From Gonatopus flavifemur (taxonomy: Eukaryota; Arthropoda; Insecta; Hymenoptera; Dryinidae): a stretch of DNA of 64,000 nt. Shown here piece by piece: positions 12,666-39,128 of the stretch (the first letter of the stretch is position 1; the number at the start of each line of letters is the position of its first letter). The position numbers and the translations under genes were made by a program. The stretch is from the NCBI GenBank assembly GCA_018340375.1, contig JAFFJZ010000046.1, forward strand, positions 372,001-436,000, given 5' to 3'. Below the pieces are notes generated by a model. That model made no database searches. It was given only the letters and a program-made list of their open reading frames with translations, and had not been told where the DNA came from.

Positions 12666-13774
12666 CTAAGATCGAACAAAAGGTTCGAGAAAAGGATTTT
12701 ACCTGCATATTACCTTCATATGACCTGCAGATATGACTTCAATCCGAATGTAAGAGTGTATTTGGATGTACAATTTCACGCTGGTTTGGAATCCAGGGTC
12801 AAAAGAATTATATCTTCCGATTTGAGATCTTTGACCTTGATTCGACCTAGATTTGACCTTGATTCTGACGTGATGAGGTCATATAGACCCCGGAATGGTG
12901 ATCTGCGACCCCAAAAACGTAAAAGTCAGCTAATTCAAGAGCCTGCCTAGCCTAATTATCAGAGAAAAGATTTGAGAAAAGGATTTCACCTACATATGAC
13001 CTTTATATGACCTGCAGATATCACTTCAATTCGAACGTAGAAGGGTATCTGGATGTAAAATTTTCCGCAGGTTTGAAACTCGGGGCAAAAAAATTATATC
13101 TTTCGATTTGAGATCTTTGACTTTGATTTGACCTTGATCCTGACGTGATGGGGTCATATGGATCCAGGAATCGTGATCTGCGACCTTTAACCCGTTGACT
13201 GCATCTGTCTACTACAGTGGACACGTAATTCATCATGCCACAAAAATTATCAATGATCTTTCAAATTAATCGGTGCGATGAAAATGTTTTAAACGACATC
13301 TGTAGAGTACGAAAATAACAGTGGTACGGGAATCGGTTTGTTATTATCTATATTTGAGGCCATTTTGTTGTGTCGAATCAACAAATTCAATACTCCATCA
13401 AATCTACATTCACAGAGCATAGTGTTGAAAATTGCCGTATTCATATTTTAAGGTGCCTCCTGTTCCTGCGATTGTTTGCAATCAATTCGAGGAGGGGAAC
13501 ATGATTTTTTCTCAGTATTTTCACTTGAGAACAATTTTCAAGTTACGCGGAAACCACTACATCGTCCACTGCAGTGAACAGTTCATTGCATCCTGTTATA
13601 ACGTTCCCTGATACCAATAGTTCGTTAAAATGTCTTAGAATTATGACTTTCCTTTAGTTTTATGTAGGAAAATTTTTTTGTAAAAGCAGCAAAAAAGATG
13701 CAATGAACGGGTTAAAACTTATAGGTACCCATCTCTGTTCTGGTGTTCCAGTGTAGATCAAATGTTGACCTGTG
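12666..13774 (-). repeat. right long inverted end, two units, interrupted by a TTAA element
   Basis: Two units (about 12690-12957 and 12958-13190) are reverse-complement relatives of the three units at 3530-4300. The outer part (13712-13774) matches 3476-3540 in inverted orientation, including the GGTACC box. A 521-base TTAA-flanked element separates the outer part from the units. Confidence 0.75.
13191..13711. mobile_element. piggyBac-like non-autonomous element
   Basis: Flanked by TTAA on both sides (13187-13190 and 13712-13715). The ends are inverted: the left starts CCCGTTGACTGCATCT and the right, reverse-complemented, starts CCCGTTCATTGCATCTTT. TTAA duplication with CCC-starting ends is characteristic of piggyBac elements. 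It is 521 bases with no transposase. Internal CACTGYAGTG/CCACTGTAGTAG palindromes lie near each end (about 13210 and 13570). It interrupts the right inverted end of the 3476-13774 element and is therefore younger. Confidence 0.8.
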
Positions 13775-26415: not shown

Positions 26416-26622
26416 AAATTCAGGGTATTCTAACTTTTGTTTGATTTTATTCCCACTCTGATTGCTAATTTGTTTGAACGATTGATGTCACACTTTTGTT
26501 TGTACACTACAACTTTTAGATTTGAGGGGGGATGTTTTGATTTTTTGTGTCACCATAGTGATAGATGCGAGGTCATTTGTTGACAGCAGCAAGAGTGACT
26601 TTCAGTGTTGGAACGGAATACA

Positions 26623-27375
26623 CACTGTAAAAAAAATCGGTAAATTTACCGAACTTTTGTTCGGGAATCGTCCAATATTGGTTCGGTAAAAAGTTTTACC
26701 GAAGAAAATTCGGTAAAACTCAGGTATCATGATTTTACCGTTATTGTTCGGGAAAATTTTTTTTCATAATGTGCAGAACTAGAAAAAATTTTGAGGTGGA
26801 AAAAACTACTCGTAATGACAGGTTTCTTATCTATTACGGAAGATTTGGAATCAAATGGATCATATGAGGAAAACCTTTTTTTCATGTTTCCCTTTATTGT
26901 AAATCAGGACTTGGGGAAAATTTCGAGTTTTGAAAAAAAACGTTCTGGCAGGGAGAAGTTTCTAATCTCATTCAAAAGATTTGGGATCGGATGGTCTATA
27001 TGAGAAAAACACTGTTTTCATAATTTTTCCCTTCATTATGAATCGGGACTTAGAAAAAATTAAGTGAATTCTCTCCAAACAATGTCGGGAAATTTACCGA
27101 GATCTCGGTAAATTTACCGAAGTCTTTGGAAAAAGTTTTTGTGATCCGTGGGAGGACTTAGAAAAAATTTCTAATTTTGAAAAAAAGGTACTGGCAGAGA
27201 CAAGTTTTTTATCCGATTCAAAAACTTTGGAATCGAATGGTCCATATGAGAAAAACACTTTTTTTTCATTTTCCCTTTTATTTTGACGCGGGACTTGGAA
27301 AAAATTTCCGAGTGAATTTTCTCCAAACAATGTCGGTAAATTCACCGAGATCTCGGTAAATTTACCGAAGTTTTT
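26623..27375 (+). repeat. left subterminal repeats of the CMC element
   Basis: The self-complementary word TCGGTAAATTTACCGA and variants occur at 26638, 26690, 27087-27120 and 27330-27370. In the last two it is doubled (ACCGAGATCTCGGTAAATTT). They are embedded in about three diverged copies of a unit containing CTGGCAG..AAGTTT, TATGAGAAAAACAC and CTCCAAACAATGTCGG. Such arrays are the expected binding sites of the element's own DNA-binding protein. Confidence 0.8.
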
Positions 27376-29251
27376 GGAAAATGGTTTGGTATTCATAGCG
27401 CAGTCGAGTTTATTACATACCACCAATACCAATAATATATCTGAAATTGTTTCTCAATTCTGTAAATCAAAAATACATAAATATTCAAGACATTTTTAAC
27501 AATATCGATACGTATTAATGTACAGAAAATAATGTATTTATATTAATTAATATTCTATGCGTGTTGTCATTGTTGTTACTAAAAGATTCAGATTTAATGC
27601 ATCCGTGATTGGTGAATTTCAAAAACCGCGTCGGCGCAAATACAAATTGTCGTTTCAACGCAGTGTTTTGTTTCTAACAGTCTTGCCGGGCGCACTTTGG
27701 AAAAAACGTGTACGTACATGTGCTTTACAAAGCTGGATCGTCGAAAACTATAATTATTAATAGATCATCTCAGAGAAGGAGTACAAATCTGATTTGCTTC
27801 AATCGCAAATGTTATTGGTAAGTATAAAAATTATTGATGCATTATTTATCTTTGATATTCATAAGGCCGTATACAATCATAACCTCACATTTTTGTACAA
27901 CTTCCACTCATTACTGTGTTGTATTTCTATCGATTGATAATTCTTCCATTATTCAAGTAAATATAAGGTTTGATCAATAATACCTTCAAATATATGTTAT
28001 GTATGTTGATTTTGCAGTTTCCATGTTTCTCGAGTATTAGAGTACGTTATCACCAGATCCTGTATGCATAAGTTTTGTTTGACTGACTTGTTGTAAATTC
28101 TATTGATAACCGCATTTGATTTATGAGAAGGAAGCATCTGGTGTAGTTTGACGAGGAATTGATTGCGGACTACGTCGGTGAGTAGAGCATGGTGTACCAT
28201 TTTTCTTACAATTTTATACAACCAACTGAAGTGACTGTCACATCAGCGATTGGTGTGAAAATAGAATTTTTTTTCAAATTAGGAACAGGACCTGTCATTC
28301 CCACCAGCAGTCAGTGTAAGTGAACGAGCAATGCTCATGATGAAGCACTCTGTTTGTATTTTGGAAAAGATTTGTGTTCTCACATCAATCGCTGGTGTGA
28401 GAGTCGATGTGTGCATGTATCATTGTAATCTCACATTTCTGTAGAACTCATATTCAATATTGTGTTGGATTTGCATCAGTTGATAATTTCTTTATTAGTT
28501 TGTCAAATATACATTCCGATCAATAATGCTTCCAACATATTCATTTTTTGATTTTTGTGTTTCCAGATTATTGATGTACGGTGTCATCAGGACACATGTG
28601 TTTAATTACGTATAAGTGTGTTGTTTGACTGGCATGAAACTAATCCTAATAAGCGCTCTGTTTCATGAATAAAAAGGAATCATTTGATCCACTTTGATAC
28701 AGATCCGATTGCAAATAATTTGGTAAGTAGAAACATGACGTTACGATTTTTCTTCAAGTGTTAGGAAATCACAATTACATCACTTTGGATGGATTTTACG
28801 ATTTTCTTCTTCCCGTTCAGTATTTTTTTTCAAACTATTCCCTTTCAGTGAGTGACAGTAATTTTTTTCTACGGTATATACCATTATAACCTCAAAATTG
28901 TGTGATACTGATATTGAAAATAGTTGAATATTTGTGCATTAGTGAGAGTGACATTTGACAAATCCAAGTATCAAAAATTGTTCTTCGTATTATGAATAAA
29001 GCTGTAGAAGTTTTCATAAAATCGTTGAAAATCTCATGATCATTTGAAATTTCTATAGAATTTTTCACAATCACTCAAAAACAATCCTTTGACTCATTTA
29101 TTGATAAATTCATTCAATTTGAACACATTCAATTGAAAACTGAGTATATCGTAATTGTTTTTGACGTATTGATAATAAATCAACTACAACATATTATCAA
29201 TATATATTGTGTTCAGTCGGATTTAAAAGATGAGATGTGAAGCTATAGTTT

Positions 29252-29371
29252 CCCTACTGTAAATCCCCAGTTAGTTCACATGGGCGTCGCATGGGAATTC
29301 CAAAATTCGCATGGGAATTTGGTAATTCCCATGCGAAACCCATGAGAACTAACTGGGAATTTAGAGTAGGG
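29252..29371. mobile_element. 120-base palindromic MITE
   Basis: The left end CCCTACTGTAAATCCCCAGT and the right end (reverse complement CCCTACTCTAAATTCCCAGT) are inverted. The interior ATGGGAATT/AATTCCCAT words are also complementary, so almost the whole element folds on itself. Flanking TT could be a 2-base duplication. It lies in the non-coding part of the CMC element. Confidence 0.8.
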
Positions 29372-30364
29372 TTATTTCATTCAATTTCAAATGAACATTC
29401 ATCGTTTTTTAATGCAATCCTTTAAAATTCATTGTATTGAAAGAAATTCTATGAAATTTGCTGAAAAAAAAATTTAATTGCAAGTTCCAGATGTAAAAAT
29501 CTTATTTGCATTTCATTGAAATTTATAATGAATTTTCATGAAATCTTCATGCTGTCACACCCTTCCAAATTTTGTGGACGTTCCATAGTGTTTTCATCTA
29601 TTAATTCATTACACGTGAGAAACATTTTCCCAAGTATTTTGCTGAGTCACAACTGTTTTCGAAAGAATTCAATTGCAACACTTTCGAAGTGATTCTATAA
29701 AATGATTCAAACAGTCGATAAAACTGTATCCAGTAATGTCATATTTGATTGAGACTAATCATCAATTAGGTAAATCATTCATACATATAAGTTTTCAAAT
29801 CAAGCAAAATCTCTTAGTAGAATGTCTTCATCGTCTTCATGCTGAAAGCTTTATTTCTGCACTCTAAAAAAAGAATCAAGTAGTTCTAAGATTTCAAGTT
29901 TGTGAAAGATATCTATGTCAGTAAAAACGATACATTTCAAAATAAAAGCTTCAATTTTGATAATAATAGAATGGTTTTGTGGTGCTCAAGCTTAGAAAAT
30001 AACAATTGAACATTTATTTGCGAATGAAATTCTCCCTCCACTGGCTTTCATACTCTGAATTCACTTATCTGTCTACATTGTCATGTATTCAATGCATCAA
30101 TGTCCTCGAAATCAAAATTATTTTTTCGGACTTGTATACATTACTGGTGTCAAGATATAAAGCTTCTTACTCCGAGATGATTCCTTCAAGATCATGTTTT
30201 TCTAACGTAAAGCCCAAATCTTGAATTTATATCACTAGGGATAGGCTTTTTTGAAGGGTGATTTATGCTTCAATTATGCTATTAGTTTTCTGAAATTATG
30301 CTCATATTCACTCTGAAATTTTCGGTGTTCATAGTTTTTCATTTATAAATCCATGAATTCCTCT

Positions 30365-30720
30365 GAAATGTCTCTGAATCTTTTCATTTTTTGGAGAGAT
30401 TCAGAGTAATTCAAAGTACTTCAAAGAAAATTACATACTTGTTAATTTCATTTCTTTAGATTCCAAAGCTCTCTCCGAATTTGTCTGAGTGTCTTTGAAT
30501 CCATCTGAATTTCTCTGAAACTCTCTAAATCTGTCTGAATCCTTCGGAATTCCGTTCAATCAGATTTCAAAGCTCTCTTCAAATTTGCCTGAATCTCTCT
30601 GAATACCTGTAAGTTTCTGTGCATCATTCAAACTGAATTTCCAAGATTTTCCTGGGATTTCAATCAATCTTTTTGAATCTCTTTCCAGATATCAACTCAC
30701 AATTCTTTCCAATTCATTTA
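30365..30720 (+). repeat. degenerate TCTCTGAATY low-complexity repeat
   Basis: Repeated short words such as CTCTCTGAAT, GTCTGAATC and CTCCGAAT, with a period of about 12 bases. Weaker copies continue to about 31100. Confidence 0.7.
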
Positions 30721-31159
30721 TCTGTGAATTGCCTATACTGACTCACCCTGAACCCCTCTGACATTTCTGATAACAAAATATTTGCATTTGAGTCTCTCTG
30801 AAATTTTTTTTGTATCCCTCCATGTTTTGGCACTTTTCCTGGTAAAAATAAAGTGTCAACGATGCAACGAAGTATTACAGAAAGTGAATTCGGATGTACA
30901 CGAAGAGGAAATCCGCGCATTTTGGAGCGTAGAATAACATTCCCTTACGTGAACGTACATCATATTTTTACCAGGGTTATTCTGAGAAATTGAGAGTATC
31001 CAGAGAAAGTTAGGAGCTCGATGCATAGTCATGAATTTTGAATCTTTCTGACTTTCAATCAACTTTGTCAGAATTGTTCTGGATCCCTCAAAATTTTCCG
31101 AATCCCTCCCAATCAACGAAAAATTACAAATACAATTTTTTTTCCATAGTGCGTGGAAG

Positions 31160-34090
31160 ATGTATCATTGCCGGTTCTGCGATAATGTTGCTGATACTTT
31201 ATCAGGCCACTTGCAGCATCATAAATTCCATACCAGCATTAGTCGGAATTTCTATTGTGGGTTCAAGAATTGCAAGATGAGTTATCGCACCGAACAATCA
31301 TTGAGGATGCATCTGCTTCGAAGGCATCATGTGCAGACGGGTGTTAAAATCTATGAACATACATCTCATATGATTGTGGATGAACATTCTAAATTTACGT
31401 GCACTGTTGAGATTTGTCGAAAAAAGTTTGATAAATATGAAAATCTAATGAAGCACCTCAAAAATCATATTTTAAGTGGAACAAAAATTGATTGCCCGTT
31501 TTCCAAATGCAAAAAGAGTTACGATAGAATCAATTCATTCACTGGACATATATCCAAATGCCATTCTTCCACCCGATTGGTACATTCCGAAAATTTAGAA
31601 GGAAACCATAATGATGAACATCAAGCTTCAAGTACTGAACAACATGAGAATAATGATATGCTTCTGGATTGCTCAATAGACTGTACACCGAATGAATCTT
31701 CCGATGTTTTACCTGAAAATTTCCATGATCTATTTCTCATGAATGTAGCCCAGCTGTATCTTTCTTTGGAAGCTAAATTCTTAGTTCCCGTATCTACAAT
31801 CCAGTATTTAATCTCAGAATTGAAAAATATTCATCATCAAGAACTTGGAATGTTGAAACAGCAACTTTCGAAATGTCTTGAGAAACATGATGTTCCAAAT
31901 GATCAAATTGGTACAATTTTTGATGAAATAACCCAAACCGATCCAGTTATTAATTCCAATATCGCATTGGAAACGAATTATAAAAGGAAAAAATTTTATA
32001 AAACAAAATTCAATTACGTTGAGCCCCAAGCATTAAAATTGAACAATTATCATGACAAACCTCAACACTTTCATTACGTGCCAGTAAGTCAAACATTGAA
32101 AGCAATGTTCAAGGATAAGTCACTGAATTTTGATTTTCCACAATGTTTTGAAGAAAAAGATCCATCTATCTTCGAAGATTTCACCGATGGGAGTGTATTT
32201 AAATCCAATGAATTTTTTCAACAGAACCCTGAAGCATTGAAAATAATAATATACCAAGATGGTTTCGAAGTGGTTAATCCTATAGGACCTGCTAGAACAA
32301 GACATAAAATCATCGCTATTTATATGAGTTTAGGAAATTTACCTCATTATATAAGAACTCATATCAACACAATACAACTAGTGGCTTTATGTAAAGAAAA
32401 ACACTTCAATCATCAATTAGTGTATGGACCAATTGTCACAGATTTGATGAGAATTGAAAATACAGGCATAGAGTTGGAACCTGGGAAATTCGTCAAAGGG
32501 TCTGTTGTATATATTGCTGGAGATAACTTGGGCAGTCACGCTCTTGGTGGATTTGTTGAAAATTTCAGCAGGGCTCAGTACTTTTGCAGATATTGCCTGA
32601 TTACGAGGAGCGATTTTGAGAAGCAACATTTAAACTCTACAGAGAAAATACCAGATGAGGTATTTGATGAAAATCCACTTGAAAATTCAATAGAAGCTGG
32701 TACAAAATCATCTGATAGTGATAATGAAAGTATGGAAAAATGCGCAGAATTATCAGATGAACACACGAGTTCTGATACCTCATGTGATTCTGATCCTGAT
32801 TCAACCAGCAACTCTTCAGAAGCAAATTCATCTGATCTATCCGATATACAATGTTCGGAAGATTTTGAATGTTGTAGTGCCAATGATTATGTTCCTAAAT
32901 CGTATTGTTCTCGCGATGTTAATAGTTATCAGCAGGCTCTGCAATTTGCAACCCAGAAATGTAATTTCCAAGGCATTAAATTTGATTCTGAATTCAATCG
33001 CCTGCAATCCTATCACGTTTGCAAACCAGGGCTCCCATGTTGTTTTGCACACGACGTTTTAGAAGGATGGGTTGCTTTCGATTTGTACCTTCTCATTTCT
33101 GGATTTGTTGAAAAGGGATGGTTTTCATACGATCTTTTTAACCGCAGAATTGAAAATTTCAAATATAGCTCTCATGATCAACGAGATAAACCTTGTATGA
33201 TTCCAGTCCGTGGAAGTAGAATTCTTGGTGGAGCTTGGCAAATATTCACTTTGCTTAGGCTTTTTCCTTTGATAATTGGAGATATGATACAGGATACTTT
33301 TGATGAGATGTGGCTTTGCTTCCTTAGAATGTCAGAAATTGTGGAAATCATATCTGCACCGACAATTCATAAGTCTTATATACCTTATCTTGAAAAGATT
33401 ATCGATGAATATTTAGGTTTGAGGTGTAAGTTATTCCCGGAAGTTAGATTACGCCCCAAGCATCATTATCTCACACATTATCCTGAACTCATCATGCAAT
33501 TTGGGCCACTGATAAAGGTATCCACTTTACGCTTCGAAAGTAAACACACATTCTTCAAAAGATGCATGAGAGTCTTGAAGTGCTACAAGAATATAACCTT
33601 TTCTTTATCCGAGAAACATGAATTGCTACAATGTGTACTTCGGTCTGGAGCACAATCACGGAATGAAACTGAGATACTTCAGGAAAATGAATTCCAAATC
33701 CATCATTACTCATATGATATTCAACAAGCCATAAGCAATGCAAATTTGACTGGCGTTATTGTAGAGTGCTCAAGTGCAATATTCAGAGGTACTTCATATA
33801 AAAAAGGGTGTATTGTTCCTTTGAGACAAGGAGCATATCAATACAATGTACAAATGGCAAGAATTATTTTAATTATATATCACAATGAAACCGATTTACA
33901 TTTTGTAATGGAAGTATTGGAGACCACGTTTGAGCCACATCTTCGTCTTTATAAATTGGGAAAAATTATGCAGTATGAGTGCTTACAAATTAATAAATTA
34001 TTGGCATATGAACCTTTGGATATTCATGTACAAAACACCACATCATACGTCAAACTTCAACACGCATTGGTTTCAACCCCATTATGTTGA
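31160..34090 (+). CDS. CMC/EnSpm-like transposase with four C2H2 fingers
   Basis: A single uninterrupted 976-residue frame. Four C2H2 fingers occupy about residues 2-24, 33-57, 81-104 and 112-135 (for example YHCRFCDNV ... HLQHHKFH) and are probably the DNA-binding module. A low-complexity acidic/Ser stretch lies inside the catalytic region at about 500-565, following a Cys pair (FCRYCL, 476-479). Proposed RNase-H-fold catalytic residues are D367 in IIIYQDGFEVVNPIG, D455 in AGDNLGSHALGGF and E793 in STLRFESKHTFFKR, each in a block that I know to be conserved in animal EnSpm-like transposases. The start is the first ATG after a plausible splice acceptor at 31149. It lies 549 bases upstream of the CIDE-N gene on the same strand. 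Family assignment is from memory of motifs plus the CACTG ends. Confidence 0.85.
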   Translation: MYHCRFCDNVADTLSGHLQHHKFHTSISRNFYCGFKNCKMSYRTEQSLRMHLLRRHHVQTGVKIYEHTSHMIVDEHSKFTCTVEICRKKFDKYENLMKHLKNHILSGTKIDCPFSKCKKSYDRINSFTGHISKCHSSTRLVHSENLEGNHNDEHQASSTEQHENNDMLLDCSIDCTPNESSDVLPENFHDLFLMNVAQLYLSLEAKFLVPVSTIQYLISELKNIHHQELGMLKQQLSKCLEKHDVPNDQIGTIFDEITQTDPVINSNIALETNYKRKKFYKTKFNYVEPQALKLNNYHDKPQHFHYVPVSQTLKAMFKDKSLNFDFPQCFEEKDPSIFEDFTDGSVFKSNEFFQQNPEALKIIIYQDGFEVVNPIGPARTRHKIIAIYMSLGNLPHYIRTHINTIQLVALCKEKHFNHQLVYGPIVTDLMRIENTGIELEPGKFVKGSVVYIAGDNLGSHALGGFVENFSRAQYFCRYCLITRSDFEKQHLNSTEKIPDEVFDENPLENSIEAGTKSSDSDNESMEKCAELSDEHTSSDTSCDSDPDSTSNSSEANSSDLSDIQCSEDFECCSANDYVPKSYCSRDVNSYQQALQFATQKCNFQGIKFDSEFNRLQSYHVCKPGLPCCFAHDVLEGWVAFDLYLLISGFVEKGWFSYDLFNRRIENFKYSSHDQRDKPCMIPVRGSRILGGAWQIFTLLRLFPLIIGDMIQDTFDEMWLCFLRMSEIVEIISAPTIHKSYIPYLEKIIDEYLGLRCKLFPEVRLRPKHHYLTHYPELIMQFGPLIKVSTLRFESKHTFFKRCMRVLKCYKNITFSLSEKHELLQCVLRSGAQSRNETEILQENEFQIHHYSYDIQQAISNANLTGVIVECSSAIFRGTSYKKGCIVPLRQGAYQYNVQMARIILIIYHNETDLHFVMEVLETTFEPHLRLYKLGKIMQYECLQINKLLAYEPLDIHVQNTTSYVKLQHALVSTPLC

Positions 34091-34098
34091 AAAAAAAT

Positions 34099-34120
34099 AT
34101 ATATATATATATTTATGAAT
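34099..34120 (+). repeat. short TA microsatellite
   Basis: About ten TA dinucleotides just after the transposase stop codon. Confidence 0.7.
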
Positions 34121-34170
34121 ATATGGCGATATACGTATGTTAAAATAATTCCTCAATGGGTATGTAGTAT

Positions 34171-34371
34171 ATGACCCTGAAGACATCGGCCGAAATCTAT
34201 CAACCAACTGCTGTAACTTGTTATCCAACTTTATTGGAAGCATTCTCTGCCATAGAAACCGATTGAGAGGTTCCTAACTGTTCATTTTGCCCGTTAAATA
34301 TTCCATAAAAGTCTCATTTGAAAAGTTACAGCAGTTGGCCGATAGATTTCAGCCGATGTCTTCAGTGTCAT
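34171..34371. mobile_element. Mutator-like MITE with 9-base target duplication
   Basis: The ends are inverted over about 47 bases: both start ATGAC.CTGAAGACATCGG and continue to CCAACTGCTGTAAC. The 9-base word ATGTAGTAT flanks it on both sides (34162-34170 and 34372-34380). Duplications of 9-10 bases point to the MULE superfamily. It is 201 bases, non-coding, and sits between the two genes of the CMC element. Confidence 0.88.
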
Positions 34372-34638
34372 ATGTAGTATTTACGAATCGCATGATTGAA
34401 TACGAACCCATATACCATAATTATCCGAAAAGAGTTCTCCCAGAATTGTTTTGATCTTTTTCAGTATTCCATTATTCAATTACTAATTCATTTCAATGCA
34501 CGATTCAAACTTCAGGAACATGTGTTCCTATTAGTATATAAGTTATTCCCCTGAAAATTAATTACACTTGTATATTATATTAATATCCAAGTTATATTAT
34601 ACAATATCGTTCATTTTCAGATTGAAAAACAGTTCAAT

Positions 34639-37609
34639 ATGCCGGCTTTTAAAATCACTGCACTCGATAGATCGAGAAAAGTCCTCGTGTCAGAAGAAGA
34701 TAACTTAGAACAACTCATACAAGTTGCTCAATGCACATTGGGTCTTCCAGATGTTGGTGAATATAAGGTATTGGAATGTGTGGATGATTATATTCAGAGT
34801 ACTTAATGTGTGCACTAGAATGAAAATTGATTTATTGCAATGCTCATTGATTGCAGTTGGTTTCTTGTCGATCAAATGACTTGTGTGTCCTCATGTTTCA
34901 TTCTTCTACTTTTTCCCATCACATTCACAATGAACAAGCCTCTGAAATTTCGAAGTATTTGCAATAAACGAGTTTTTACTGCATTGCATTAATTCATATA
35001 TAGCGCATCTGACATATTCATACTGAAACGCAACTTTCAAATACGCTCCTCTATTTGCATTTTTTCCCATAATTCTTTTGTCAAAAACTTTGATGTGCGT
35101 AGTATCATTTGATAAAATCATACCTTCAAACCACCATTATGAACAATATGGAATGGGATACAGATCCATGTATAATCAGGTTATTTTACTGATTGTACGA
35201 AGGAAAAACAAATCCCAAAATGTACATTTGGGGTGCACCCCTAGTAAAAATTTTCATTTCGGTTCGCCAAACGGGCTTGGTGCGGACGTTTTGCGTCTTT
35301 TCATGGTATTGTTGCAGGCGTAGTGCGGGCGCATCACGTCTGCAACAATGCCGCACCAAGTCCGTTTGGCGAACCCAAAATAAAAATTTTTACTCGGGAC
35401 TCCACGTTAACCGTAAAGATTTAAAAAATATGATCCTTGTTCAGAATTATTTAGTATGCTTTTTTTCTTGCAGATTGTGCTTGAAGACGATGGCACAGAA
35501 ATTCCAGATTTTACTTGTTTAATTCAATTAACACAGCAGTGCCCAGGTACCATAATATGTTTGATGTTATTAGAGAAACATGAGATGTGGCAATCCCGTT
35601 CTACAGGGACAGAACCACAACACTCAGACCACCAATCCAATCGCGGTGAATATCATTCTTTCAAATACGTTCAAATATATGTCATATGATGAATTTCGAT
35701 AAATTTTCGCATCGTACTCATAATTACAGGAACTTCTTGTGGATCATCTGATTCAACTAATTCCGTGCGTAATGGAAATTTTACACAAGCGTCAACACAA
35801 GGCCATCCTATCAACTGGCTTGATATTATACCTACAGGATTTACGAATCGACCCGATAACGCATCTTCTCTTGAATTGCAACTGGTTAGAAATGCGGCGA
35901 AATATATAAACGACGTTTGGAAAGATCGTTCACTGGGTTCCGCAGAAATAATGGCTCAACAATTGATTGCGAAATTACCCAAACCTTTTGAACAAAGGAC
36001 TTGGAATGTAGGGAATGATGAGACGTGCATTGTACATTCTGGAGAACATGCTTTGAAAACTTGGATCTATGACTGTGCCAGATATATGGTCAGTCGAAGA
36101 CCCAGAACCGTAGTTGGCACTCAGGACTCCAGCAACTGTGATAGTGATCTTGATGCTCAAAACCGACTTTCAAAACATCAAGATAGTCACGGATGTGTGG
36201 CTTATGAACCAGCTCTACCAGATAAAGAAACACCACAGACACAGGAAAATCAGAAGGAACAGTTGAAGGTGGCGCTGAAGAAGGGTGAGACACAGGGAAA
36301 GCTTATACAATCTCTTTTGAACAACACTTACGCATCTCAACGTCATATTATAAACCACAGAGAGGAGCTTAAATTGACTTTAGCGGACATTCTTGAGAAT
36401 CACTGGCCACACTTGCGCATAACAGAACATTTTATGCTCCACGCTTCTACACTCCTGGGAAAGGATGTCTCTGAAGTATGGAATAAAAATATTAACATGA
36501 AAGTTGAACATTCAGTGAGTTACTTCAAATCAATATGTACTATACAAAATATGAAGAAAAAAAATTGCGCCCCGTATTTATCCCTCATTTGGAATGAATT
36601 TCAAAGTGCGAATACTGCAGCCAAAGAACTAGAAAGTCGGATTCCACAAACTTTGGTTATATTTCCAATTCTGGCGCATTATTTTTCTGAAGCCAACATA
36701 TTCACTGTTTTGGTGAGTAACGTTTCTCGTCGACATTTTTAATTAACATTCTAATTATTCAGTAAGTGTTTATATGAGTCTACTATTCAAGTGCACGACC
36801 AAACCCGGTTACTTTGATATGTGTTAATCCGCTTGTTAATACGAGTACTACTCGTATCGCTCGCATTACTTGAAGTAGACGATTGATATAAATTCTTACT
36901 CGGTTAATGCCGGATTGACGCAATAATACTCGAATGCTTGAGTATTCGAAAATCCAAATCTTCAAGTATCAATAAAATTTGTAAGATATATATGAATTTC
37001 TTCTCATATTGATCTGAATGACCATGAACCTCATTTTCAGGATCCATCGGCTACGCAATCTGATATTGAAGGTGTAGATTCGACGCATCCTGTGTTGATA
37101 TTGAAAGGTATTATTCTACTAAAATGAATAACGAAATATACGGTTTTTTACACTGAGGATTATTTCCAGGACGATCTTTATATGACGAAAATTGCTCGTG
37201 CTTTGTCATCATCGAAAAAAAAATAGTTTTGGAACCTGCCACTGTATTACAAGGAATATTGTGTTGCTTCTTAAGTTTTTTTGTATATGGATATAATTAT
37301 ATGTCCGATCAAACATTAACTATGGAATTTATTCAGCGGTGAGTGATATTTATGCGGGAGAGATCAATTTTATTTTTGACACACCGTTCCTCAATCAATG
37401 CTTCTTCCAACTACAACAATTCATATACAAGTTGGCCTATTGTATTTGTTTGATAATCATAATAATTTTATTCCCGCAGAATGTTTCTAAGTATCGATCC
37501 TGATCAAGGACATCGTAAAGGAAGAGTGACCAAGGCTTCTGAATTGAAAAAAGATACTCAAGTGAGGCGTCTTATCACAAGTATTGTGAAAAATTCATAC
37601 TTTGGGTGA
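34639..37609 (+). CDS. CIDE-N domain protein, second gene of the CMC element (six exons)
   Basis: Exons 34639-34767, 35474-35645, 35730-36712, 37041-37107, 37170-37338 and 37480-37609 join in phase through five GT-AG introns to give 549 residues with no stop. Residues 1-83, encoded by exons 1-2, match the CIDE-N fold found in DFF40, DFF45 and CIDE proteins: FKITALDRSRKVLV, LEQLIQVAQCTLGLP, then IVLEDDGTEIPDF and TIICLMLLEK. In those proteins CIDE-N mediates head-to-tail homo- and heterotypic assembly. Residues of about 130-440 (WLDIIPTGF, ALKTWIYDCARYMV, DILENHWPHLR, LPYLSLIWNEF-like blocks) vaguely recall second proteins beside similar transposases and SAMD3-like proteins, but I assign no function. 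The last three exons look like a conserved C-terminal domain. A polyadenylation-type AATAAA occurs near 38080. I infer an accessory factor for transposition or self-assembly; host-gene capture is an alternative. Confidence 0.82.
35238..35398. mobile_element. palindromic MITE in intron 1 of the CIDE-N gene
   Basis: A left arm (CCCCTAGTAAAAATTTTC, then GGTTCGCCAAACGGGCTTGG) and an inverted right arm (CCAAGTCCGTTTGGCGAACC ... AAAATTTTTACTCGGG) enclose a short GC-richer loop. It is about 161 bases. The insertion lies well inside the intron, 76 bases before exon 2, and does not touch either splice site. Its ends (CCYNAGTAAAAA) resemble those of 48233-48603. Confidence 0.8.
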
Positions 37610-38448
37610 AGAAGATTGATAACATTAAATCAGACTCTATTAAACGTTGAGGTACCAAAGAAATACCACAGGATATTTAGAAAATACACTTCCTGCTATG
37701 ATTTTTCATATTCCCATAAGTATTACGAAAGCAGTCATATTTTACTTTCGAATTATTTATTCTTATCAAATCGTTTCATTTATTCTAAATATTTATTAGC
37801 TATCAACATTCATGTTCAATTTATAAAGTTCATTTTATATTGAGATTCTGATATAAGACGTGTACTATGTTCCTACATTGTGTGAACTGACAAACCAATT
37901 TCATACAAGTTTCAAGTTTATTTCATAGGAATGTTATCAACATTTCATCGAGTATTATTGATGCGTAATATAAGACTGATCCATTTATGTATAATTCAGA
38001 ATTGATAAAGTATTGTGATTTTCATTTATCATTAATGAACACATAATTATAACTATATTCAATTAAAGTGTTTGGTGAAAATAAATATGTTTTCCTTGAC
38101 GAATTATTTTATTCGTAGGGGAAATAAGCAACATTCACATTTTCCACCAAAAATAATTGGTGGTTTTCTCAGTTTTTTGAAGAGAAAACAAACTTGGATA
38201 ATCCATAATTGATCGATGAAAATATCGAATTTTATTAGCGAATTAAAATTCAACAACTTGAAAATTTATTTATAAATATCCTGAAATTTTTTAGTGAAAT
38301 TCTGGAATTCAGGACGATTTACGATTCATCTGGAAAAACACCAATCCTTTCTGGTAAAATTCAAAAACTTCCGAATTCATCGGTTAAAATCCCGAACTTC
38401 TTCCGGCAAAAAATTGTGATTCAAAATTGCAGAAAATCAACGGATTTC
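37610..38448. other. 3' flank of the CIDE-N gene
   Basis: AT-rich 3' untranslated or flanking sequence inside the CMC element. It has a candidate AATAAA near 38080 and no reading frame of note. Confidence 0.4.
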
Positions 38449-38992
38449 GGCACTTTTACCATAAAATTTCAGTAATTTTACCATACGATTTCGGTAATTT
38501 TGAGCCATTGGATTCCATATCTTTCCCGAGAATAATTGGTAAAATTACCATACTATTCCGGTAATCTCAAGTTACTCAAATCCATATTATTTCCGAAAAT
38601 GATCGGTAAAATTACCATACTATTTCGGTAATCTCAAGTTACTCAAATCCATATTATTACCGAAAATGATCGGTAAAATTACCATACTATTTCGGTAATT
38701 TCAAGGTACTCAAGTTCATATTATTTCCGAAAATGATCGGTAAAATTACCATAGTATTTCGGTAATTTCAAGGTACTCAAGTTCATATTATTTCCGAAAA
38801 TGATCGGTAAAATTACCATACTATCTCGGTAATTTCAAGGTACTCAAGTTCATATTATTCCCGAAAATGATCGGTAAAATTACCGAATAGAGTCAAAATT
38901 ATTCCCGATATCAATTGGGAATTTTACCGAAACTTCGGGTTAATTGCTTCCCGAATATTTTCGGTAAATTTACCGAAATTTTTTTTACAGTG
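38449..38992 (-). repeat. right subterminal array of the CMC element, 67-base units
   Basis: Five complete 67-base units start at 38516, 38583, 38650, 38717 and 38784, with a partial at 38851 and a decayed unit before 38516. Each carries CCGAAAATGATCGGTAAAAT, TACCATACTATTTCGGTAAT and ACTCAA. The TCGGTAAA/TTTACC words match those in the left subterminal region, so the two ends share motifs although the unit lengths differ. It ends in the terminal repeat at 38955-38992. Confidence 0.92.
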
Positions 38993-39128
38993 CATATTAT
39001 CGCGTTCATCGTTTTTATAAAAGTGTATTGTGGCTCCTTATATTCTCAGATGAGTTTTTCGTGAATGCATATCGTTGATGATTTCCCGGGGTGAATTGAC
39101 GATTGGCGCTAGGATGGCGCAACCTTAA

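What the first reader, a model, noticed from the sequence alone, without database searches (positions are those of the whole stretch)
26623..38992. Intact two-gene CMC-like transposon pairing a zinc-finger transposase with a CIDE-N protein
CACTG ends, shared subterminal motifs and two uninterrupted same-strand genes define one 12.4 kb element. The second gene begins with an unmistakable CIDE-N domain, a self-assembly domain known from apoptotic nuclease regulators and lipid-droplet proteins. I know of no described role for CIDE-N in DNA transposition. Head-to-tail CIDE-N filaments could assemble transpososomes, bridge distant ends or interfere with host DFF signalling; these are hypotheses.
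Basis: partly seen in the sequence, partly recalled or inferred. Interest (0 to 1): 0.88.

Follow-up and report, generated by a model that had tools for sequence, protein, structure and literature searches.

The report
Transposon family carrying a CIDE-N gene
In what looks like an insect genome, a family of jumping genes carries, beside its cut-and-paste enzyme, a second gene that starts with a self-stacking domain known from cell-suicide and fat-droplet proteins, which hints at a new way for a transposon to build its machinery or deal with its host.

Summary
Window 26623-38992 is a complete transposon: CACTGTAAAAAAAAT ends, a 2-bp target duplication (CA/CA), an intact zinc-finger transposase (RAG1/Transib-type fold, DDE triad, CMC-clade motifs) and an intact six-exon gene whose 549-aa product begins with CIDE-N (Pfam 29.5 bits, cut-off 23.5). 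A second copy (99.73% over 12,372 bp) ends at exactly the same bases elsewhere, with TG/TG. In the same genome 18 of 22 CIDE-N loci lie just downstream, same strand, of a related transposase (16 of 20 if near-identical contigs are counted once). Three strongly diverged families have the same ends with TA duplications. Of the four exceptions, two read as host DFF/Drep-type genes, one probably is, one is unresolved. The pairing occurs on both sides of the deepest split of a midpoint-rooted transposase tree, so it is old or recurrent. What the CIDE-N protein does is inferred: most likely a self-assembling accessory protein of transposition; interference with host DFF proteins is the main rival. 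The paper searches made here showed no description of a CIDE-N protein in a transposon. Everything rests on one genome.

The parts
26623..38992 (+). whole transposon, 12,370 bp
   Evidence: identity with the C240 copy begins and ends exactly here; TIRs; 2-bp duplication CA/CA
26621..26622 (.). target-site duplication CA, left
38993..38994 (.). target-site duplication CA, right
26623..26637 (+). left terminal inverted repeat CACTGTAAAAAAAAT
38978..38992 (-). right terminal inverted repeat
26637..27381 (.). left subterminal region: palindromes TCGGTAAATTTACCGA and a 246-bp repeat (1.9 copies, 26906-27381)
38444..38985 (.). right subterminal region: 67-bp tandem array (38478-38884, 6.1 copies) with GGTAAAATTACC palindromes, and the terminal palindrome
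31160..34090 (+). gene 1: transposase, 976 aa from the first ATG (residue numbers in this report count from 31151, so the ATG is residue 4): four C2H2-like units, RAG1-type catalytic core with D370, D458, E796, C-terminal BAH-like domain (about 838-967)
34639..34767 (+). gene 2 exon 1: first half of CIDE-N
   Evidence: identical in the C240 copy
35474..35645 (+). gene 2 exon 2: second half of CIDE-N (VLEDDGTEI...)
35730..36712 (+). gene 2 exon 3: linker and conserved C-terminal domain
37041..37107 (+). gene 2 exon 4
37170..37338 (+). gene 2 exon 5
   Evidence: weak possible counterparts in families A and B (E about 0.1)
37480..37609 (+). gene 2 exon 6 with stop codon

Best explanation
This is an apparently autonomous, recently active cut-and-paste DNA transposon of the CMC/CMCT clade (CACTA-like) with two genes. 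Gene 1 is the catalytic transposase: C2H2-like fingers, a RAG1/Transib-type RNase H core with the DDE triad, and a C-terminal BAH-like module. Gene 2 encodes an accessory protein: an N-terminal CIDE-N domain followed by a conserved C-terminal domain. Shown: the anatomy, the ends, the duplications, repeated co-mobilisation of both genes, and conservation of CIDE-N across deeply diverged families. Inferred: CIDE-N makes the protein assemble head to tail through opposite charged faces, as CIDE domains of DFF/Drep proteins do. The assembled protein would cluster transposase and pair the far-apart ends; in the window family it may do so on the palindromic repeats at both ends. It would thus do the job of the second protein of other two-gene transposons (TNPA of plant CACTA elements, RAG2-like proteins; both recalled).
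Against: No biochemistry and no usable structure of the gene-2 protein: its exon-3 part folded alone reached mean pLDDT 41.5, and Pfam found nothing but CIDE-N in it. The end repeats are not general: in families A, B and C88 the best 9-mers shared by both ends occur only 2-4 times, so a repeat-coating role is not supported there. The L032 and L035 relatives lack the DGT motif and part of the basic stretch. In the window pairs pN is 0.48-0.57, so with saturated silent sites the sign of selection is weaker there. Database searches with gene 2 found no relative outside this genome.
Confidence: 0.5

Rival explanations
1. Gene 2 is a host-interference factor. Its CIDE-N binds the host's own DFF40/DFF45-type (Drep) proteins and damps the apoptotic nuclease or death response that follows the double-strand breaks of transposition.
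For: CIDE domains form hetero- and homo-oligomers through oppositely charged regions (PMC8647176, passages read). At least two host-type CIDE-N genes are present in this genome. The window's CIDE-N is 33% identical to the L005 host domain, within its range of 21-40% to the other transposon copies aligned, so sequence does not set it apart from host partners.
Against: Host domains score far higher against the Pfam model (101.2 and 59.4 bits) than the window's (29.5) or the other transposon copies (about 29-47). The conserved C-terminal domain is not explained. No interaction data.
Confidence: 0.23
2. Gene 2 is a regulator or anti-silencing factor. CIDE-N-driven assemblies titrate transposase or host chromatin factors and adjust transposition or expression rather than acting in the synaptic complex.
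For: Accessory genes proposed to counter silencing are known in CMC-type and other transposons: TET/JBP dioxygenases in fungi (PMC12730594, passages read). The transposase here carries a BAH-like, possibly chromatin-reading, C-terminal domain.
Against: No silencing-related domain was detected in gene 2.
Confidence: 0.17
3. Passenger: a host gene captured by chance and not needed by the element.
For: CIDE-N genes exist in the host; capture of host genes by transposons is common (general knowledge).
Against: The same two-gene order recurs in families whose transposases are only 33-36% identical to the window's, with CIDE-N and the C-terminal domain conserved and amino acids constrained.
Confidence: 0.04
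4. Chance neighbourhood: a host CIDE-N gene family next to old transposase copies.
For: None found.
Against: Both genes lie between matching ends with equal 2-bp flanks in eight insertions; 18 of 22 loci are paired in the same order and strand.
Confidence: 0.01

Closest known systems
CACTA/EnSpm (CMC) DNA transposons
   Same: Ends beginning CACT, subterminal repeats (window family), DDE transposase with C(2)C and H(3-4)H; of 40 transposases scanned, 7 match Pfam DUF4218 and 6 Transposase_21 at E<=0.1; a second protein beside the transposase (TNPA in plants; recalled).
   Different: 2-bp instead of 3-bp duplications; N-terminal C2H2-like fingers and a BAH-like C-terminus; the second protein has CIDE-N.
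ESTA (EnSpm-like transposons with TA duplications, fungi; PMC12730594)
   Same: CMCT-type transposase; 2-bp duplications, TA in families A, B and C88.
Transib / ProtoRAG (RAG1-RAG2)
   Same: RAG1-type catalytic fold and, for ProtoRAG, a second accessory protein.
   Different: 5-bp duplications and no CIDE-N in those (recalled); only about 10% identity in the structural alignment.
CIDE-N domain proteins (DFF40/CAD, DFF45/ICAD, CIDEA-C, Drep1-4)
   Same: N-terminal CIDE-N with an LExDGTxV/I motif and a basic stretch.
   Different: Host genes for apoptosis, lipid droplets or synapse; this one is multicopy, lies in a transposon and shows no other Pfam domain behind CIDE-N.
Fungal transposons with TET/JBP genes (PMC12730594)
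   Same: An extra host-like gene carried by many transposon families.
   Different: An enzyme thought to act on DNA methylation, not a self-assembly domain.

Membership tests
CMC/CMCT clade of DNA transposons | DDE/D triad in an RNase H-like core | tested here: met
   D370 and D458 in 40 of 40 rows, E796 in 37 of 40 (3 gaps, no other residue); RAG1/Transib fold
CMC/CMCT clade of DNA transposons | C(2)C and H(3-4)H motifs between second D and last E | tested here: met
   C479-x2-C482 in 40 of 40; H772-x3-H776 in 39 of 40 (1 gap); criterion from PMC12730594
CMC/CMCT clade of DNA transposons | CA..TG termini (in most cases) and 2-5 bp duplications | tested here: met
   CACTG..CAGTG and 2 bp in 8 of 8 independent insertions with both ends
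CACTA/EnSpm proper | 3-bp target duplications | tested here: not met
   2 bp in 8 of 8
CACTA/EnSpm proper | Pfam Transposase_21 / DUF4218 | tested here: inconclusive
   not in the window protein; 6 of 40 and 7 of 40 transposases match at E<=0.1
Transib | 5-bp duplications (recalled) | tested here: not met
   2 bp
ESTA | groups with fungal ESTA transposases in a tree | not testable with these tools
   no ESTA sequences at hand
CIDE-N domain | score over the curated Pfam cut-off | tested here: met
   29.5 bits against 23.5, residues 4-83 of 549; the other four gene-2 proteins score 41.8-46.9 bits
CIDE-N domain | ubiquitin-like fold and head-to-tail filament | not testable with these tools
   as I read its rule, the structure tool does not take the spliced protein or own-genome proteins; filaments need experiment
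DFF40 / DFF45 / CIDE proteins (orthology) | the family's C-terminal domain behind CIDE-N | tested here: not met
   only CIDE-N found by Pfam at E<=1
Mobile DNA transposon | copies at different sites with identical borders and target duplications | tested here: met
   window and C240; family A at three sites
Autonomous transposon | encodes all it needs to move | not testable with these tools
   both genes are open in the window copy, but activity was not assayed

The most novel reading that the evidence does not exclude
CIDE-N is the ancestral second-protein module of a whole animal lineage of CMC-type transposons, because it occurs on both sides of the deepest split of the midpoint-rooted transposase tree. 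It polymerises to assemble long-range synapsis of the ends, and through the same charged faces it also plugs into the host DFF/Drep death-nuclease system, so that transposition and the cell's DNA-break death response are physically coupled.
Probability: 0.25. Interest if true: 0.92.

Novelty: new variant of a known kind. Interest (0 to 1): 0.76.

Why it matters
Filament-forming CIDE domains are known from death and lipid-droplet proteins; a conserved copy inside a DNA transposon would be a new kind of transposon accessory protein. It offers a testable idea for how elements 7-15 kb long pair their ends, or for how a transposon handles the host's DNA-break death pathway. It also warns that expansions of CIDE-N in genome surveys may be transposons: Hydra is reported with 10 and 7 CIDE-N genes against 1-3 in five other cnidarians, in genomes where CMC is among the largest DNA-transposon groups (PMC7642931, passages read; a lead, not a test).

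Tried and rejected
Gene 2 against about 5.8 billion proteins, as one sequence and as a five-family alignment: no match at the E-values asked (0.001 and 0.01). That tool needs shared 5-residue words, so this is weak evidence of absence. Relatives in viral contigs (transposase, gene 2) and prokaryote genome contigs (transposase): none; those answers warn that records near the window's genome may be left out. Fold of the gene-2 exon-3 part alone: mean pLDDT 41.5, discarded. A right-end census was asked for many times and never answered, nor was a gene-2 census with the C88 protein; so the lengths of the derivative elements are unknown. In family A a shorter end pair (6,365 bp) also exists because a 397-bp element with the same ends is nested inside; the outer pair (7,212-7,214 bp) is taken because identity between the three copies runs to it. 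CIDE-N locus C78:2000825 has no listed transposase within 70 kb and could not be read. Common 9-mers at both ends of families A, B and C88: no repeat array like the window's. Searches for print on CIDE-N or CIDE domain with transposons: 4 papers; one, on Hydra, read in passages, the others by listing only; 4,823 papers held two of the terms; the 15 listed hold no 'CIDE-N', so uninformative; 0 papers; 1 paper, on CIDEA, listing only; 0 papers. None seen describes such a gene.
Full report
WHAT WAS CLAIMED AND WHAT IS THERE. The sequence shows a 15-bp terminal inverted repeat, CACTGTAAAAAAAAT. Its first 13 bases occur without mismatch in the window only at these two ends. The palindrome GGTAAAWTTACC occurs 10 times in the window, all near the ends of the element: three within 745 bp of the left end, seven within 455 bp of the right end. 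The right end carries a 67-bp tandem array of 6.1 copies and the left end a 246-bp repeat of 1.9 copies.

PROOF THAT IT MOVES AS A UNIT. A second copy at C240 is 99.73% identical over 12,372 aligned bases, with 27 mismatches and 5 gap openings. The match starts at window 26623 and ends at 38992, and the flanks I compared (about 0.5-1 kb) do not match. Each copy has its own 2-bp duplication: CA/CA in the window, TG/TG at C240. So the element moved recently and its borders are exact.

GENE 2. It has six exons with GT-AG borders and 549 aa without a stop. CIDE-N covers residues 4-83 at 29.5 bits, over the cut-off of 23.5. By sequence alone, the nearest solved structure is fly DREP2 at a non-significant E of 0.18. 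The C240 copy keeps the splice sites but has a frameshift in exon 3; the window copy is open throughout.

THE PAIRING IS A RULE. A CIDE-N scan of the genome gave 24 matches. Merging neighbours within 15 kb leaves 22 loci. Eighteen of the 22 have a transposase match 279-2,546 bp upstream on the same strand, against an expectation of about 0.0006 per locus. The transposase places come, whose lists were capped (47 of 1,096 and 51 of 998 candidates scored). Three of the 18 (C12, C37, C52) are near-identical contigs; counted once, it is 16 of 20. The window's own CIDE-N is not among the 24, because an intron splits it. The four exceptions: C1:11045225 and C111:3080440, whose frames read as host Drep/DFF-type CIDE-N (naming by eye); a locus on C110 whose two matches cover the two halves of the domain 13 kb apart, which I take for an intron-split host gene but did not read; and C78:2000825, unresolved. 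With the exon-3 domain as query, 26 of 48 loci have a transposase upstream within 10 kb; 22 have none in the capped list.

FOUR FAMILIES WITH DEFINED ENDS. I fetched about 20 kb around ten CIDE-N loci. Nine carry a transposase match beside the CIDE-N gene; the tenth is the host-type locus C111:3080440, which has no such match and no such ends. Eight of the ten are bounded by CACTGTAAAA...TTTTACAGTG with TA on both sides: family A (three sites, 7,212-7,214 bp, over 99.3% identical), family B (C12, C37 and C52, counted as one insertion, and C323; 11.5-12.5 kb) and C88 (14,571 bp, one site, so its borders rest on the end motifs alone). The ninth (C111:561858) shows the left end only. With the window and C240 this makes eight independent insertions, all with equal 2-bp flanks. 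The family A transposase is 33-36% identical to the window's over the stretches matched.

CONSERVATION. Gene-2 proteins of the window, A, B, C88 and C111 align over most of their length, with VLExDGTxI and C-terminal motifs shared, although identity to the window is only 21-23%. All five score over the CIDE-N cut-off. In the 10 family pairs pS is 0.67-0.93 and pN 0.29-0.57 over the CIDE-N columns: amino acids are constrained while silent sites are saturated, less clearly so in the pairs with the window (pN 0.48-0.57). Eight transposase relatives of the window were at hand with 1.5-kb flanks (L031-L038). Six show a frame like exon 1 of gene 2 downstream (L031, L032, L033, L034, L035, L038), L036 only its first part, and L037 at most a fragment (by eye except L034). 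Two of them could be spliced across an intron at the same place and score 23.3 bits (L032, just under the cut-off) and 25.0 bits (L035) against CIDE-N.

AGE. In a tree of 44 transposases, families A and B, with two unnamed proteins, lie across the midpoint root from the window and two more own-genome relatives. A group with the sea cucumber and zebrafish proteins branches between them, and thrips, ant and wasp proteins fall in the window's larger clade. Unless CIDE-N was gained twice or swapped between elements, it was there before that split, and the intervening elements should carry it or have lost it. The root is only a midpoint. Gene-2 distances run parallel: A, B, C88 and C111 are closer to each other (42-50% over CIDE-N) than to the window (28-35%). 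That fits common descent. The window's CIDE-N alone does not decide it, being 33% identical to a host domain and 21-40% to the other transposon copies.

HOW IT PROBABLY WORKS. Shown: a moving two-gene unit, a CMCT transposase and a constrained CIDE-N protein. Established elsewhere: CIDE domains stack head to tail through opposite charged faces (PMC8647176, passages read). In the five aligned proteins a basic R-x2-K stretch and the LExDGTxI stretch are kept; I did not map them onto the known faces. Inferred: the second protein assembles near the ends and helps the transposase bring ends 7-15 kb apart together. Against this stand the lack of a usable structure for its C-terminal half, the absence of comparable end repeats in families A, B and C88, and the missing DGT in L032 and L035. 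The main rival is interference with the host DFF/Drep proteins.

DERIVATIVES. The left 148 bp finds 38 places at 90-92% identity besides the two full copies, with 40 of 165 candidates scored, so the count is a lower bound. These are probably shorter relatives that use the same kind of ends; their lengths and right ends could not be checked.

LIMITS. One genome; no RNA data; no other species; gene-2 searches outside found nothing. The literature search was of open-licence PMC only, so an entry in a repeat database or a subscription paper could exist.

Noticed in passing
[not shown]
   Followed up: partly
34169-34373: Between the two genes lies a 205-bp inverted repeat (51-nt arms, 92% complementary), perhaps a small nested element; other inverted repeats at 29252-29371 and 35246-35390.
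   Followed up: no
G000:C251:544514-544910 (positions 13315-13711 of the fetched stretch): A 397-bp element with the same CACTGTAAAA ends sits inside all three family A copies, so it was probably there before they spread.
   Followed up: no
G000, 38 places listed besides the two full copies: Left-end sequences about 91% identical to the window's are spread over many contigs: probably non-autonomous derivatives of this family.
   Followed up: partly
G000:C78:2000825-2001034: A CIDE-N match with no listed transposase within 70 kb: a fragment, a lone gene 2, a domesticated copy or a host gene.
   Followed up: no
G000:C12, C37, C52 (L017-L022): Three small contigs share about 20 kb at over 99% identity including flanks: segmental duplication or redundant assembly.
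   Followed up: no
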